DNA from: Phycisphaerales bacterium
GTDB lineage: Bacteria; Planctomycetota; Phycisphaerae; Sedimentisphaerales; Anaerobacaceae
Assembly (NCBI GenBank): GCA_003141315.1
Contig: PLLP01000006.1
Location: 772 to 64,771, forward strand
Direction: 5' to 3'
Length of the DNA stretch: 64,000 bases
How positions within the stretch are numbered: position 1 is the stretch's first letter; each line of letters starts with the position of its first letter. Positions 5,842 through 62,917 of the stretch are shown one piece after another. Both the position numbers and the translations under genes were made by a program. The notes beneath the pieces were generated by a model that saw only the letters and a list, made by a program, of their open reading frames with translations, had not been told where the DNA came from and did no database searches.

Positions 5842-8433
5842 ATGAAAGAAGAAAAGCCTATACCGCAGCGGATTGAGGGTGTGCATATCCTCGACGAGCT
5901 TAAAAATTCGTATATGAATTACGCGATGAGCGTAATTGTTTCGCGTGCGCTTCCTGATGTTCGCGACGGCCTGAAGCCCTCGCAGAGGCGAATCCTCGTG
6001 GCGATGAACGACCTTAGCCTCGGGCCTCGAAGCAAGCACCGTAAATGCGCAAAAATCGTCGGCGATACGGGCGGCAACTATCACCCGCACGGCGACCAGG
6101 CGACCTACGGCACACTCGTGCGGCTCGGCCAGGACTGGAGCATGCGATATACGCTGGTTGACCCGCAGGGTAATTTCGGCAGCATCGATGACGACCCGCC
6201 CGCGGCGATGAGATACACCGAGGCGCGAATGACGGCGGCGGCAACGGATATGCTCGAAGACCTCAAAAGCGATACGGTCGATTTCGTGCCGAACTACGAT
6301 GAGACGCGCACCGAGCCGTTAGTACTGCCGGCAAAATTTCCGAACCTGCTCGTCAACGGCAGCACCGGCATAGCCGTCGGTATGGCGACGAATATTCCGC
6401 CGCACAATATCGGCGAGGTATGCGATGCCCTGCTTTTAGTTATAAACGACCCGGATTGCGGGTTTAAGGATATTATGAAGGTTCTGCCCGGGCCGGATTT
6501 TCCGACAGGGGCAAACATCTGCGGCAGAACAGGCATCGTCGAGGCCTACACCACCGGCAAGGGGCACCTGACCGTTCGGGCACAAGCGGACATCGAAAGC
6601 AGCAAGCGCGGCAAGGATATAATCGTGATTACGGAAATTCCGTATATGGTTATCAAAAGCGCAATCGTTGCGAAGATTGCCGAGTGCGTTCATAACGACC
6701 AGATAGCCGAGATTTCCGACGTGCGCGACGAATCAGACCGGCAGGGAATGCGGGTTGTGGTCGAGCTGAAAAAGGATGCGGACCCGCAGGTAGCACTGAA
6801 TAAACTCTTCAGTTTCACGCCGCTCGAATCGACTTATGCGATTTCCAGTATTGCGCTGGTGAACAACAGGCCTGAAACGCTCAATATCAAGCAGATGCTG
6901 CAGCTGTTCGTTGAGCATCGTAAAGTTGTAATCCGCAGGCGCAGCAGCTTTTTGCTCGGCAAATGCCGCAGCAGGTCGCATATACTCGAAGGCCTGATTA
7001 TGGCGGTGAGCGACATCGACGATATTATCGAGATAATCAAGAAATCGCCGGATGCGCCAACGGCAAGAATAAATTTGATGAAAAAGCCTCTCAAACTCGA
7101 AGAGACGGCGACGCTGAAAAGAATTCTGCCGGCAGAATTCATAAAAGAAAAAAGCAAAAACAAGCAGTTCCTTTCGGAGCCGCAGGCGGATGCGATTTTG
7201 ACGATGCAGCTGCAACGGCTTACCGGCCTTGAAATAGAAAAACTCGCAAAGGAATACGCTGCGCTTGTCGAGGAAATTGAAGGATACGAGGCGATACTGG
7301 CCAACGAAAAGATACTGATGGATGTCATCCGCGAGGACATCTACGAGATAAAGCAGAAATTTACCGACAAGAGACGGACAAAAATTGTAGGCAGCGTTGA
7401 AAATATTGACGTCGAGGATTTGATAGCCGACGAGGACGTGATTGTGACGGTAAGCAGCGACGGCTATATCAAGCGGATGCCGATAGATACTTACCGCAAA
7501 CAGGGCCGGGGCGGAATGGGCATTATCGGCTCGGATATTAAAGAGGGTGATTTTATCAAGCACCTCTTTGCAGCCTCGACGCACGATTACCTGCTGATTT
7601 TTACCAATCGCGGAAGGTGCTACTGGCTGAAGGTTTATGATGTGCCGAGCCTGACGAGGCAGAGCAGGGGCAGGAGCATCGCAAACCTGCTGAACCTCGG
7701 CGAGCAGCAGATAGCATCGATAATCAACGTGGCGAATTTCGAGGACGAGAGCTGCCAGCTTATTATGGCAACGAAAAACGGGCTGGTAAAAAAGACCAAC
7801 CTGTCGGCCTATGGCAACCCGCGTACGACCGGCGTTATCGCAATCAATCTCGACCCGGACGATGCGGTTATCGGCGTGGTGCTGACCAGCGGCAAAGACC
7901 ATATCGTGCTTGGAACGCGGGATGGAATGGCGATACGGTTCGACGAGAAGCAGGTGCGCTCGATGGGCAGGGCTGCACGAGGCGTGAACGGGATTCGGCT
8001 GCGCCCGAAAGATAACGTAATTGGAATGGTGGTTGTGGAGGAAAAGGCGGCGCTGCTTACGGTCTGCGAGGAAGGTTACGGCAAACGGACCGGGTTCGAA
8101 AATTACAGGACGCAGTCGCGAGGCGGCGTGGGCCTGATAAACATAAAGACGAGCGAGCGAAACGGTAAGGTCGTTGCCTTAAAGGCCGTCCAGCACGCCG
8201 ATGAACTGATGCTTATTACGGCCATGGGGATTGTAATGCGAACCGGCCTTGATGAGATACGTTCAATCGGCAGAAATACGCAGGGAGTCCGGCTGATAAA
8301 ACTCAAAGACGGCGACAAACTCGTGGCGGCGGAAAAAATCGTAAGCGAAGAAGACGATGTTCCCGGCAAAGACGCAGCGGACGGTGAAGCGAAAAAATCC
8401 AAAAAAGAAAAAACTGATGAGGACGGCAAATAA
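5842..8433 (+). CDS. gyrA: DNA gyrase subunit A
   Basis: An 863-residue GyrA, the breakage-reunion subunit of the type II topoisomerase that introduces negative supercoils. The active-site tyrosine is Y125 in AAMRYTEARM. The quinolone pocket reads HPHGDQATYGTLVRL, so the positions of E. coli S83 and D87 are Q86 and G90. The C-terminal beta-pinwheel region contains a GyrA-box-like QGRGGMG, supporting gyrase over topoisomerase IV, and ends in an acidic/basic lysine-rich tail. The ATG at 5842 follows GAGGAC. gyrB is not adjacent. holA follows 51 bp downstream and may be co-transcribed. Confidence 0.96.
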   Translation: MKEEKPIPQRIEGVHILDELKNSYMNYAMSVIVSRALPDVRDGLKPSQRRILVAMNDLSLGPRSKHRKCAKIVGDTGGNYHPHGDQATYGTLVRLGQDWSMRYTLVDPQGNFGSIDDDPPAAMRYTEARMTAAATDMLEDLKSDTVDFVPNYDETRTEPLVLPAKFPNLLVNGSTGIAVGMATNIPPHNIGEVCDALLLVINDPDCGFKDIMKVLPGPDFPTGANICGRTGIVEAYTTGKGHLTVRAQADIESSKRGKDIIVITEIPYMVIKSAIVAKIAECVHNDQIAEISDVRDESDRQGMRVVVELKKDADPQVALNKLFSFTPLESTYAISSIALVNNRPETLNIKQMLQLFVEHRKVVIRRRSSFLLGKCRSRSHILEGLIMAVSDIDDIIEIIKKSPDAPTARINLMKKPLKLEETATLKRILPAEFIKEKSKNKQFLSEPQADAILTMQLQRLTGLEIEKLAKEYAALVEEIEGYEAILANEKILMDVIREDIYEIKQKFTDKRRTKIVGSVENIDVEDLIADEDVIVTVSSDGYIKRMPIDTYRKQGRGGMGIIGSDIKEGDFIKHLFAASTHDYLLIFTNRGRCYWLKVYDVPSLTRQSRGRSIANLLNLGEQQIASIINVANFEDESCQLIMATKNGLVKKTNLSAYGNPRTTGVIAINLDPDDAVIGVVLTSGKDHIVLGTRDGMAIRFDEKQVRSMGRAARGVNGIRLRPKDNVIGMVVVEEKAALLTVCEEGYGKRTGFENYRTQSRGGVGLINIKTSERNGKVVALKAVQHADELMLITAMGIVMRTGLDEIRSIGRNTQGVRLIKLKDGDKLVAAEKIVSEEDDVPGKDAADGEAKKSKKEKTDEDGK

Positions 8434-57917: not shown

Positions 57918-58120
57918 TTTTTAGCTCCTTATAAAAACCAGAAGGTTAAAATAAAAACATCACCAGCATACAAAAGAAGTTTCCTTTAATCAAGAAAACA
58001 GTTAAACAGTTCCAACACAGCCGCGGAACAAAACATAAAATACGATAGGCCCTTTAAAAAAAGTATTTTTTTCTTGCAGAATTGATAAAGGTTATTATGA
58101 TAATTCTAAAATATTGAAAT
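57918..58120. other. Divergent intergenic region upstream of the riboswitch
   Basis: The region between the M14 gene and the riboswitch is AT-rich and contains the predicted kdp promoter (58074-58101). No gene is seen. Confidence 0.5.
58074..58101 (+). promoter_or_regulatory. Predicted promoter of the kdp operon
   Basis: TTGCAG at 58074-58079 and TATGAT at 58096-58101 with a 16-bp spacer place the transcript start about 10-15 nt before the riboswitch. Confidence 0.5.
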
Positions 58121-58256
58121 AATGTGGCCGAAATTCATGAAATCCATGGATACGGGGAACCCGGTTTTCAGGGGCGTATTCCCATACAGGGATAAGGCAC
58201 TTCCAGGCCTGAGCCCGTCAGCTAACCTCGTAGGCGTTTGGAAGAGCATTGCACAG
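58121..58256 (+). ncRNA. c-di-AMP riboswitch (ydaO/yuaA type)
   Basis: The conserved blocks of the ydaO RNA are present in order: GGGGAACCC at 58154-58162, a GGGGCGTATTCCC/AGGGAT segment, and the hallmark CCCGTCAGCTAACCTCGTAGGCG at about 58214-58236 followed by TTTGGAAGAG. A short P1 can form between AATGT (58121-58125) and GCATT (58246-58250). The family binds cyclic di-AMP and usually switches off genes for potassium uptake or cell-wall remodelling. Here a terminator and the kdp genes follow directly. GCATTGCACAG (58246-58256) can alternatively pair with 58269-58280, giving an antiterminator. Confidence 0.87.
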
Positions 58257-58263
58257 AAACTAT

Positions 58264-58297
58264 AAAGACTGCTGCTATGCCGGCAGTCTTTTTCTTT
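58264..58297 (+). terminator. Riboswitch expression-platform terminator
   Basis: AAAGACTGC (58264-58272) pairs with GCAGTCTTT (58283-58291), followed by a T-rich tail to 58297, only 15 bp before the first small gene. CTG at 58269-58271 and TGCTATGC at 58273-58280 can instead pair with the 3' side of P1, so ligand binding should favour termination. Confidence 0.82.
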
Positions 58298-58312
58298 TAA
58301 AGGATATAAAAA

Positions 58313-58399
58313 ATGGACATCTTTTTCACAGTCATAATAGTTCTTTTAGCCGTCGTTTCATTTGCATTTATCGCATTGTGCGACAGAGTTAAGGAGTAA
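58313..58399 (+). CDS. 28-residue membrane peptide at the head of the kdp operon
   Basis: ATG 58313, preceded by AAGGA at 58299-58303, encodes 28 residues: an almost entirely hydrophobic helix (FFTVIIVLLAVVSFAFIAL) ending in CDRVKE. Short peptides with a CDR/CER-type ending sit before kdpF in a number of other bacterial kdp operons, to my recollection. The stop is 6 bases before kdpF. It may be an extra small subunit or regulator of the Kdp pump. Confidence 0.65.
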   Translation: MDIFFTVIIVLLAVVSFAFIALCDRVKE

Positions 58400-58405
58400 T
58401 TAAAT

Positions 58406-58498
58406 ATGCCTGTTATTTATTGGATTGGCGGAATAATTGCATTGTTTCTCTTTATTTATTTGCTGATTGCTCTTCTGAAGCCGGAGATTTTCTCGTGA
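58406..58498 (+). CDS. kdpF: Potassium-transporting ATPase subunit KdpF
   Basis: A 30-residue single-helix protein (GGIIALFLFIYLLIALLKPEIFS) with the KdpF hallmark L-x-KPE-x-F at the end. AAGGAG lies 9 nt upstream of ATG 58406. Its TGA overlaps the GTG start of kdpA (GTGA at 58495-58498), so translation is coupled. KdpF stabilises the KdpABC complex in the membrane. Confidence 0.88.
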   Translation: MPVIYWIGGIIALFLFIYLLIALLKPEIFS

Positions 58499-60240
58499 AT
58501 TGGTTCAATCTTGTCCAAACTGCCATTTTTCTCAGTGCACTGCTTTTGTTAGTTAAGCCGCTGGGCATCTATATGGCACTGGTTTATGAAGGTAAACCTG
58601 CCGGACTCAATGTATGGCTGGCGCCGGTGGAAAGATGGATTTACCGGCTGTCCTTCATTAAACCTGATATGTCTATGTCCTGGAAGACTTACGCAGCGGC
58701 AGTGATGTTGTTTAATATTATAGGCATTATTGTTGTCTATGCCCTGCAGCGTTTACAGGCATACCTCTTTTTAAACCCGATGTCTATACCGGCAGTACCG
58801 CCGGATTTGGCATTCAACACTGCGGTCAGTTTCGCCACGAACACGAACTGGCAAAGTTACGGTGGCGAGACAACGTTGAGCTACCTTACCCAGATGCTGG
58901 CATTGACAGTGCAGAATTTTGTTTCCGCGGCAACGGGTATGGCGATACTTGCAGCCTTAATCAGGGGATTTGTTCAAAAACAGGTAGAAACAATTGGTAA
59001 CTTCTGGGTGGATTTAGTCAGGTCAACAATCTATGTTTTAATTCCTCTCGCCTTGATTCTATCTTTGATTTTAGTATCACAGGGAGTTGTCCAGACCTTC
59101 AAATCGAGCGCAAAAGTCGCTCTGCTTCAGCCGACAAAAGACGCGGATGGGAAAATTATTTCAGAGCAGACTCTTGCCCTTGGCCCCGCTGCCTCGCAGG
59201 TTGCCATTAAACAATTGGGCACCAACGGAGGAGGCTTTTTTAACGTCAACTCCGCTCACCCTTACGAGAACCCAACGGCATTATCAAATTTTCTGGAAAC
59301 TCTCGCGATACTCCTGATACCGGCCGCCCTGTGCTACACCTTCGGATTTATGGTCAGGGACAGGCGTCAGGGCTGGGCAATTCTTGCAGCCATGCTGATT
59401 ATTTTTATCCCCTGCCTATTAAGCTGCATATACTTCGAACAAAAAGGTAACCCATTGTTTGACCGTTTGGGCGTGGACCAAAATGCAACGGCGTTACAGC
59501 CCGGCGGAAATATGGAGGGAAAAGAAGCACGATTCGGCGTCACCAGTTCGGCTGTCTGGGCAACAGCCACCACGGCGGCTTCCAACGGCTCGGTCAATTC
59601 AATGCACGATTCCTATATGCCTCTGGGCGGTTTAATCCCGATGTGGCTTATGCAATTGGGAGAAGTGATTTTCGGAGGCGTTGGCTCAGGTCTTTACGGA
59701 ATGATTGCGTTTGTTATTATCGCCGTTTTTATTGCGGGCCTTATGATTGGCCGAACACCCGAATACCTCGGCAAAAAAATTGAATCTTACGAAATGAAAA
59801 TGGCGTCCCTTATGATTTTAATCCCGCCCATACTTGTTCTTGTCGGGACAGCAGTTTCAGTTGTTTTACCTCAGGCCAAACAGGCAATTTTCAATCCCGG
59901 CACGCACGGCTTCAGCGAAATATTGTATGCCTTTTCCTCAACAGCAAACAATAACGGAAGCGCGTTCGCAGGTTTATCTACCAACAATTTCTTTTATAAT
60001 TTAACTCTGGGGTTAGTGATGTTTTTCGCCAGATACTGGCTGGTGATACCGATACTGGCAATTGCAGGCTCACTGTCGAGAAAAAAAGTTGTCCCCGCAA
60101 CCCAGGGGACTTTGCCGACGCATACGCCTCTTTTTATTTTATTCCTCGTAATGGTCGTCTTAATCGTCGGCGCCCTGACCTTTTTCCCTGCTCTTGCACT
60201 TGGCCCGATTGTCGAGCACCTGATGCTGGGCGGAGGTTAA
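58495..60240 (+). CDS. kdpA: Potassium-transporting ATPase subunit KdpA
   Basis: A 581-residue polytopic channel-like subunit that binds and moves potassium. The selectivity-filter repeats are visible in FATNTNWQSYGGETTLSY, QLGTNGGGFFNVNSAHPYENPTALSN, GGLIPMWLMQLGEVIFGGVGSGLYG and FSSTANNNGSAFAGL. The reading frame is open further upstream, but the GTG at 58495, overlapping the kdpF stop and preceded by GGAG, gives the normal N-terminus (NWFNLVQTAIF). Confidence 0.96.
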   Translation: MNWFNLVQTAIFLSALLLLVKPLGIYMALVYEGKPAGLNVWLAPVERWIYRLSFIKPDMSMSWKTYAAAVMLFNIIGIIVVYALQRLQAYLFLNPMSIPAVPPDLAFNTAVSFATNTNWQSYGGETTLSYLTQMLALTVQNFVSAATGMAILAALIRGFVQKQVETIGNFWVDLVRSTIYVLIPLALILSLILVSQGVVQTFKSSAKVALLQPTKDADGKIISEQTLALGPAASQVAIKQLGTNGGGFFNVNSAHPYENPTALSNFLETLAILLIPAALCYTFGFMVRDRRQGWAILAAMLIIFIPCLLSCIYFEQKGNPLFDRLGVDQNATALQPGGNMEGKEARFGVTSSAVWATATTAASNGSVNSMHDSYMPLGGLIPMWLMQLGEVIFGGVGSGLYGMIAFVIIAVFIAGLMIGRTPEYLGKKIESYEMKMASLMILIPPILVLVGTAVSVVLPQAKQAIFNPGTHGFSEILYAFSSTANNNGSAFAGLSTNNFFYNLTLGLVMFFARYWLVIPILAIAGSLSRKKVVPATQGTLPTHTPLFILFLVMVVLIVGALTFFPALALGPIVEHLMLGGG

Positions 60241-62338: not shown

Positions 62339-62917
62339 ATGTTTAAAGAGCAGATTAAACCGGCCATTCTTTCTTTTTTGATCTTAACGATTATTACAGG
62401 CGTTCTTTATCCACTGGTTGTTACGGGGATTGCTAAAGTTTTTTTCCCCAAACAAGCCAACGGCAGCCTGATTTACAGAAACCAAAAGCCAATCGGTTCA
62501 TCACTTATCGGCCAGCCCTTTGATAATCCCAAATATTTCTGGGGTCGCCCTTCGGCAACGTCTCCGGTTGCATTTAACGCATCGGCCTCATCGGGCTCTA
62601 ATCTGGGCCCCTTAAATTCCGCATTAGCTGAAACGATAACAAATCGCATCAAACTGTATAAAGCTGCTGACCCCAATAACACTGCCCCTGTTCCGGTTGA
62701 CCTTGTTACCTCTTCAGCAAGCGGGTTAGACCCACACATCAGCCTGGCCGCCGCCTTTTATCAGATTTCTCGCGTTGCTCGCCACCGGAACTTATCGCAG
62801 GATACCGTTAAGAAAATTGTCCTTCAGCATACAAAGGGACGCCTAATGGCAATTATTGGAGAGCCGGTCGTAAATGTCCTCGAAGTGAATTTAGAATTAG
62901 ATGAGTATAAAAAATAG
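62339..62917 (+). CDS. kdpC: Potassium-transporting ATPase subunit KdpC
   Basis: A 192-residue single-helix subunit (ILSFLILTIITGVLYPLVVTGIAKVFFPKQANGSLI). It has YFWGRPSATSPVAFNASASSGSNLGP, DLVTSSASGLDPHISLAAAFYQ and a C-terminal VNVLEVNLELD, typical of KdpC, which assists KdpB. It starts 10 bp after kdpB. Confidence 0.96.
   Translation: MFKEQIKPAILSFLILTIITGVLYPLVVTGIAKVFFPKQANGSLIYRNQKPIGSSLIGQPFDNPKYFWGRPSATSPVAFNASASSGSNLGPLNSALAETITNRIKLYKAADPNNTAPVPVDLVTSSASGLDPHISLAAAFYQISRVARHRNLSQDTVKKIVLQHTKGRLMAIIGEPVVNVLEVNLELDEYKK

What the first reader, a model, noticed from the sequence alone, without database searches (positions are those of the whole stretch)
58074..58315. Complete c-di-AMP off-switch in front of a kdp operon
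Promoter, ydaO-type aptamer, competing antiterminator/terminator pairs and the first kdp-operon gene lie within 240 bases. P1 (AATGT with GCATT) and the antiterminator (58246-58256 with 58269-58280, 7 of 8 matches plus CAG/CTG) use the same strand, so ligand binding should release the terminator. Seen: motifs and complementarity. Known: ydaO RNAs bind c-di-AMP and kdp is a typical target. Inference: c-di-AMP turns off potassium import in this planctomycete-like organism.
Basis: partly seen in the sequence, partly recalled or inferred. Interest (0 to 1): 0.75.

Follow-up and report, generated by a model that had tools for sequence, protein, structure and literature searches.

The report
c-di-AMP riboswitch controlling a potassium pump
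A planctomycete bacterium carries an RNA switch that should shut off its emergency potassium pump when the messenger c-di-AMP is high; the switch type is known, but it turns up here outside the Bacillus group, beside a pump regulator that has lost the kinase half that normally does this job.

Summary
A full-length ydaO/c-di-AMP riboswitch (RF00379, 83.1 bits, cut-off 38) lies at 58116-58251, followed by a strong terminator (58264-58298) and the kdp operon (28-aa ORF, kdpF, A, B, C, D). The stated pairings exist. The genome encodes a CdaA-type diadenylate cyclase and has a second riboswitch in front of a KimA-like potassium transporter.

Corrections: the antiterminator is not better than chance in this sequence alone, although comparison across 12 leaders supports it. 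The terminator is about 6 kcal/mol more stable, so the switch must be kinetic. The promoter is only a weak match.

New here: the operon's KdpD (726 aa) keeps its N-terminal serine-kinase-type domain, USP, membrane and GAF parts but lacks the histidine-kinase core, and the genome has no clear KdpE. The riboswitch appears to stand in for KdpDE. A 2019 paper described this swap as restricted to Bacillales. I find it at 11 kdp loci in Planctomycetota, Omnitrophota and MAGs labelled Desantisbacteria and Atribacteria. Every complete KdpD there (8 of 8) lacks the kinase core. The aptamers are not one lineage, so riboswitches seem to have been recruited to kdp several times. New member of a known kind.

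The parts
58074..58101 (+). putative sigma-70 promoter, TTGCAG (58074-58079), 16-nt spacer, TATGAT (58096-58101)
   Evidence: sequence; weak: -35 matches 3 of 6 and the consensus scan did not list it. Several relatives have TTGACA at the equivalent place.
58116..58251 (+). c-di-AMP (ydaO/yuaA) riboswitch aptamer
   Evidence: RF00379, 83.1 bits, model 1-134, E 1.8e-19; only Rfam hit of the window
58121..58125 (+). 5' strand of outer P1 extension AAUGU, pairs with 58246-58250
   Evidence: complementarity with one G-U
58200..58205 (+). pseudoknot loop CUUCCA, pairs with tail UGGAAG 58239-58244
   Evidence: complementarity; own-versus-swapped loop/tail test over 12 leaders, 314 of 20000 permutations as good
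58239..58244 (+). pseudoknot 3' strand in the aptamer tail
58246..58256 (+). switch strand: 3' strand of outer P1 (58246-58250) and 5' strand of antiterminator
58269..58280 (+). 3' strand of antiterminator, inside the terminator's 5' arm and loop
   Evidence: pairing probability 0.97 in free transcripts ending 58280-58286, at most 0.11 when the tail is blocked
58264..58298 (+). intrinsic terminator: stem 58264-58274/58281-58291, T tract 58289-58298
   Evidence: z -4.19
58313..58399 (+). 28-aa membrane ORF, conserved ahead of kdpF in many kdp operons
   Evidence: no Pfam or NCBIfam hit; homologous small ORFs in many relatives
58406..58498 (+). kdpF
   Evidence: PF09604, TIGR02115 over cut-off
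58495..60240 (+). kdpA
   Evidence: PF03814 E 4.9e-247; TIGR00680
60253..62328 (+). kdpB, with TGES (S162-type serine) motif
   Evidence: TIGR01497 1079.8 bits; TGES at residues 161-164
62339..62917 (+). kdpC
   Evidence: PF02669
62955..64000 (+). kdpD without histidine-kinase core (runs off the window; complete as L004:5327-7507, 726 aa)
   Evidence: PF02702, Usp, DUF4118, GAF hits; no HisKA or HATPase; below KdpD equivalog cut-offs

Best explanation
A transcriptional OFF riboswitch. When c-di-AMP is high (potassium-replete cell), two ligands lock the aptamer, its pseudoknot and P1; the 3' tail 58239-58251 is tied up, the antiterminator cannot form, the terminator 58264-58291 folds and RNA polymerase stops before kdp. 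When c-di-AMP falls (potassium limitation), the tail is free, pairs with 58269-58280 as soon as these bases emerge, delays the terminator, and kdpFABC plus kdpD is transcribed. Because the finished terminator is the more stable form, the decision must be kinetic. The riboswitch stands in for KdpDE: the operon's KdpD has lost its histidine-kinase core and probably acts only after translation, its N-terminal domain phosphorylating KdpB to stop pumps already made. Shown here: aptamer, terminator, pairings, gene content, kinase loss, cyclase. Inferred: ligand-dependent termination, direction, KdpD's remaining role.
For: RF00379 full-length hit. Terminator z -4.19. In transcripts from 58108, antiterminator probability 0.97 at ends 58280-58286 when free and at most 0.11 with the tail blocked, where the terminator already reaches 0.37 at 58286. 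Tail matches own terminator better than swapped ones, 370 of 20000 permutations as good over 12 leaders; tail-shuffle combined p 0.0015. CdaA in the genome. Second riboswitch in front of a KimA homologue. No HisKA/HATPase in KdpD; best KdpE-like match in the genome 140 bits/39% against 202-269 bits in genomes with KdpE. Ten further kdp loci with the same leader and a hairpin with T tract after it (weak in L050). Same arrangement shown experimentally in B. thuringiensis (PMC6488665); KdpD N-terminal serine kinase shown in PMC11018627.
Against: Antiterminator alone is at chance level in this sequence and 6 kcal/mol weaker than the terminator (-8.9 against -14.9), so equilibrium favours termination in both states. 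Antiterminator support is poor in L012, L050, L066 and L016. Promoter weak. No expression or binding data. KdpE absence rests on a similarity threshold and a 96.6% complete MAG.
Confidence: 0.85

Rival explanations
1. The leader is a c-di-AMP riboswitch but mostly a constitutive attenuator: the terminator dominates in both states and the main control lies at the promoter or in another regulator.
For: Terminator more stable by about 6 kcal/mol and fully formed at 58291 in both folding scenarios; antiterminator at chance level in this single sequence; weak promoter.
Against: Antiterminator forms with 0.97 probability before the terminator's 3' arm is complete; tails match their own terminators across 12 leaders; the B. 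thuringiensis kdp riboswitch changes expression about tenfold (PMC6488665).
Confidence: 0.1
2. KdpD is still a signalling partner: another histidine kinase and response regulator of this genome control kdp as well, and the riboswitch is only a second layer.
For: The genome has 19 matches to KdpE as a receiver-domain query, best 140 bits/39%. L062 has a KdpE-like gene end just ahead of its riboswitch. Brocadiales L058 and Omnitrophota L073 pair kinase-less KdpD with a separate kinase and KdpE near kdp.
Against: Those separate KdpEs score 200-216 bits; no such gene in G000, G005 or G046, where the best are 140, 145 and 111 bits; none beside the window's operon.
Confidence: 0.15
3. The RNA binds another ligand (for example ATP, once proposed for ydaO).
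For: ATP sensing was once reported for ydaO (title of a 2012 paper cited in PMC9481103).
Against: The aptamer keeps the conserved core shared by 26 aptamers and fills the whole RF00379 model; the genome makes c-di-AMP; both riboswitches sit before potassium transporters.
Confidence: 0.02

Closest known systems
kdpFABC c-di-AMP riboswitch of Bacillus thuringiensis BMB171 (PMC6488665)
   Same: ydaO aptamer and terminator in front of kdpF-A-B-C, truncated KdpD, no KdpE; OFF by termination at high c-di-AMP
   Different: There KdpD is cut to 365 aa (resembling the N-terminal domain only) and the arrangement was reported as restricted to Bacillales; here KdpD keeps membrane and GAF parts (726 aa) and only the histidine-kinase core is gone; phylum Planctomycetota; extra 28-aa ORF leads the operon
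ydaO riboswitch of kimA (ydaO) and ktrAB in Bacillus subtilis
   Same: same RNA class, potassium uptake targets; the window's genome also has one in front of a KimA homologue
   Different: different transporter; aptamer phylogeny places the window's kdp aptamer beside its own kimA aptamer, not beside other kdp aptamers
Short KdpD serine kinases (PMC11018627)
   Same: N-terminal domain with G-X5-GKT Walker A-type motif, no DHp/CA core; kdpB carries the target serine motif
   Different: The shown short type (Deinococcus geothermalis) is KdpD/Usp only and answers c-di-AMP; this one keeps membrane and GAF parts and lacks the (A/G/C)XSXSX2N(Y/F) c-di-AMP motif. That paper suggests truncated-DHp/CA types may not need transcription control; here a riboswitch supplies it
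Tandem c-di-AMP riboswitches (PMC9481103, 77 doublets)
   Same: relative L066 carries two aptamer-terminator units before kdp
   Different: the window has one unit

Membership tests
c-di-AMP riboswitch (RF00379, ydaO/yuaA) | matches the covariance model above its gathering score over the full length | tested here: met
   83.1 bits against 38, model 1-134
c-di-AMP riboswitch (RF00379, ydaO/yuaA) | conserved core letters and tail/loop pseudoknot | tested here: met
   alignment of 26 aptamers; CUUCCA/UGGAAG
c-di-AMP riboswitch (RF00379, ydaO/yuaA) | binds c-di-AMP | not testable with these tools
   needs in-line probing or calorimetry; genome encodes CdaA
transcriptional OFF switch | intrinsic terminator directly after the aptamer | tested here: met
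transcriptional OFF switch | antiterminator that excludes both the terminator and the ligand-bound tail | tested here: inconclusive
   pairings present and mutually exclusive; at chance level alone, supported by comparison
transcriptional OFF switch | ligand lowers read-through | not testable with these tools
   single-round transcription needed
kdpFABC riboswitch system as in Bacillus thuringiensis | riboswitch directly upstream of kdpF/A/B/C | tested here: met
kdpFABC riboswitch system as in Bacillus thuringiensis | no working KdpDE pair | tested here: met
   KdpD without HisKA/HATPase, single KdpD in the genome, no KdpE above 140 bits
KdpDE two-component control | KdpD with DHp/CA core plus KdpE | tested here: not met
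c-di-AMP-binding KdpD | USP motif (A/G/C)XSXSX2N(Y/F) | tested here: not met
   window has CISSNPGAM (motif from PMC8214093)
KdpD atypical serine kinase | G-X5-GKT Walker A-type and Walker B motifs, KdpB target serine | tested here: met
   GAVAGVGKT by reading the translation, ILVDELAHSN, TGES in KdpB

The most novel reading that the evidence does not exclude
In several unrelated bacterial lineages, c-di-AMP riboswitches already serving other potassium transporters were copied in front of kdp, and took over transcription control while KdpD shed its histidine-kinase core and KdpE, leaving KdpD as a purely post-translational brake: a repeated protein-to-RNA regulator replacement.
Probability: 0.45. 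Interest if true: 0.65.

Novelty: new member of a known kind. Interest (0 to 1): 0.42.

Why it matters
It takes kdp control by a c-di-AMP riboswitch out of Bacillales (PMC6488665) into Planctomycetota, Omnitrophota and MAGs labelled Desantisbacteria and Atribacteria, and links it to loss of the KdpD histidine-kinase core. That gives a natural series for testing how a protein sensor pair is replaced by an RNA sensor, and whether kinase-less KdpD survives because its N-terminal serine kinase still brakes the pump. The mechanism itself is established.

Tried and rejected
A hidden or degenerate riboswitch in the kinase-less Brocadiales, L056 and L063 operons: nothing significant with Rfam or with my own model with filters off. 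Strict mutual exclusion of riboswitch and KdpE: not upheld, L062 has a KdpE-like gene end directly upstream. Tree-corrected test of riboswitch against kinase loss: underpowered, only 2-4 independent pairs. Two of three clade tests on the KdpA/KdpB tree did not finish. Pair counting on the MAFFT alignment of Omnitrophota expression platforms was dropped because the register shifts by indels; permutation tests were used instead. A single ancestral kdp riboswitch: rejected for the aptamers (AU p 1.9e-8) and for the KdpA/KdpB tree (p 8.3e-8); gene conversion between riboswitches of one genome remains a possible cause of the aptamer pattern.

Full report
What is there. The window holds a complete c-di-AMP riboswitch (RF00379, 83.1 bits, gathering score 38, E 1.8e-19, model positions 1-134) at 58116-58251 on the + strand; it is the only Rfam match of the 64 kb at gathering level. 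Twelve bases on starts a terminator, stem 58264-58291 with a T tract to 58298, far more stable than shuffles of the same bases (z -4.19, 0 of 200). Translation starts at 58313 with a 28-aa membrane ORF, then kdpF (58406), kdpA (58495), kdpB (60253), kdpC (62339) and kdpD (62955, running off the window). What is weak is the promoter: TTGCAG-16-TATGAT was not listed by the scan, although several relatives carry TTGACA at the same distance from the aptamer.

How it should switch. Between the two lies the aptamer's pseudoknot strand UGGAAG (58239-58244), complementary to the loop CUUCCA (58200-58205); loop and tail match their own partners better than swapped ones over 12 leaders (314 of 20000 permutations as good). 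Ligand binding therefore should tie up 58239-58251, the stretch the antiterminator needs. Partition-function folding of growing transcripts from 58108 gives the antiterminator a probability of 0.97 at ends 58280-58286 when the tail is free, and at most 0.11 when it is blocked, where the terminator already reaches 0.37 at 58286. Once 58291 is reached the terminator wins in both cases (0.93-0.94; -14.9 against -8.9 kcal/mol), so any switch must be kinetic. In this sequence alone the antiterminator is no better than chance (z +0.84; p 0.24). Comparison helps: over 12 non-redundant leaders tails fit their own terminator better than swapped ones (370 of 20000) and better than shuffled tails (combined p 0.0015), although L012, L050, L066 and L016 give little support. 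I judge an OFF switch by termination very likely, not proven.

The ligand's source. The genome (G000, 2.35 Mb, 96.6% complete) has one DAC-domain gene, a CdaA by NCBIfam (199.2 bits, cut-off 188.8). It has a second RF00379 riboswitch (82.1 bits) in front of a gene whose only solved relative is the potassium transporter KimA (E 4.3e-62). So c-di-AMP and potassium uptake are tied together at two loci. The organism is in Planctomycetota: two 'same phylum' genomes have contigs of exactly the length of named Kuenenia and Brocadia contigs.

The missing kinase. KdpD here is 726 aa: KdpD domain, Usp, DUF4118 and GAF, with no HisKA or HATPase; the C-terminal remnant reads FSLELQEPL where, from my own knowledge of the family, a histidine-box sequence of the type SHDLRTPL would stand. 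It is the only KdpD of the genome, no kdpE follows, and the best match to E. coli KdpE is 140 bits/39%, against 263-269 bits in three planctomycetes with full KdpDE and 202-204 bits in two Brocadiales. The N-terminal G-X5-GKT motif, Walker B and the TGES serine of KdpB are intact. By PMC11018627 this N-terminal domain phosphorylates KdpB and stops the pump at high potassium, even without the DHp/CA core. The c-di-AMP motif of staphylococcal USP domains (PMC8214093) is absent. My reading, marked as inference: transcription is governed by the riboswitch, and KdpD remains as a post-translational brake that may still sense potassium through its membrane and GAF parts.

Comparison. PMC6488665 showed the same arrangement in Bacillus thuringiensis and described it as restricted to Bacillales and mutually exclusive with KdpDE. 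Among 60 relatives only G000, G005 and G046 have a real kdpA, and all three have the riboswitch in front. Among 392 genomes of the phylum no other true kdpA lies behind one. A scan of genome contigs with KdpA plus my own covariance model, checked with Rfam, found the riboswitch directly ahead of kdp at 11 loci: three close planctomycete lineages including the window, G005, five Omnitrophota, one MAG labelled Atribacteria and one labelled Desantisbacteria, the last with two aptamer-terminator units in tandem. Of loci with a complete KdpD, 8 of 8 with the riboswitch lack the kinase core against 9 of 50 without (Fisher p 1.3e-5). This p ignores relatedness; the tree gives only 2-4 independent pairs. 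Kinase-less operons without the riboswitch may have a separate kinase and KdpE nearby (L058, L073). L062 breaks strict exclusion: a KdpE-like gene ends just upstream of its (weakest, 50.7-bit) riboswitch.

Origins. In a KdpA/KdpB tree ten of the eleven loci fall in one 17-row clade of operons whose complete KdpDs all lack the kinase core (SH-aLRT 98), while G005 lies among full KdpDE planctomycetes; holding all eleven together is rejected (AU p 8.3e-8). In an aptamer tree the window's kdp aptamer is sister to the kimA aptamer of the same genome, the G046/L054 kdp aptamers sit with a trkH aptamer, G005 is apart, and the Omnitrophota group forms its own set. One clade of kdp aptamers is rejected (p 1.9e-8), as is one clade of the three planctomycete ones (p 0.012). 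This suggests three or four separate recruitments; gene conversion within genomes could mimic part of it, and 145 columns are few.

Literature. I found no paper placing a kdp c-di-AMP riboswitch outside Bacillota, but the library holds only open-licence papers.

Verdict. The finding is real and its interpretation sound. As an element it is a new member of a known kind. Its interest lies in the setting: a distant phylum, a kinase-less KdpD of a different build from the Bacillus one, and signs of repeated recruitment.

Noticed in passing
L005:5679-7694 and L002 (G000:C15:62762-62896, - strand): Second RF00379 riboswitch of the same genome with its own terminator, in front of a KimA homologue (6s3k, E 4.3e-62).
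   Followed up: yes
L066:9463-9860 (Desantisbacteria JACQWU010000112.1): Two complete c-di-AMP aptamer-terminator units in tandem ahead of kdp, with identical tails and terminators; tandem c-di-AMP riboswitches are known (PMC9481103), but the passages I read there do not name kdp.
   Followed up: partly
window 58313-58399: 28-aa membrane ORF (MDIFF...ALCDRVKE) before kdpF; similar MD...C(D/E)(R/K)(V/L) small ORFs precede kdpF in many kdp operons across phyla, yet no Pfam or NCBIfam model hits it.
   Followed up: partly
L052:1501-6677 (G017:C70): c-di-AMP riboswitch in front of an operon of histidine kinase, response regulator, TrkA-like and TrkH-like genes.
   Followed up: no
L050:2710-3489 and 6265-7044 (G005:C29): Two extra genes inside the riboswitch-led kdp operon: a secreted, porin-like protein between kdpA and kdpB, and a membrane sensor-like protein without kinase between kdpC and kdpD.
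   Followed up: no
L019-L047 (GC-rich planctomycetes): Most RF00379 hits elsewhere in the phylum show no terminator after the aptamer, so these may act on translation or otherwise.
   Followed up: partly
L062:1-381: KdpE-like gene end directly upstream of a riboswitch-led kdp operon: possible exception to the published mutual exclusion.
   Followed up: partly
L004:7758-13388: Downstream of kdpD lie three successive pairs of ECF-sigma-like and larger partner genes, apparently paralogous.
   Followed up: no
L016 (G024:C80): c-di-AMP riboswitch with terminator in front of a gene that does not look like a potassium transporter; its aptamer is sister to the G005 kdp aptamer.
   Followed up: no
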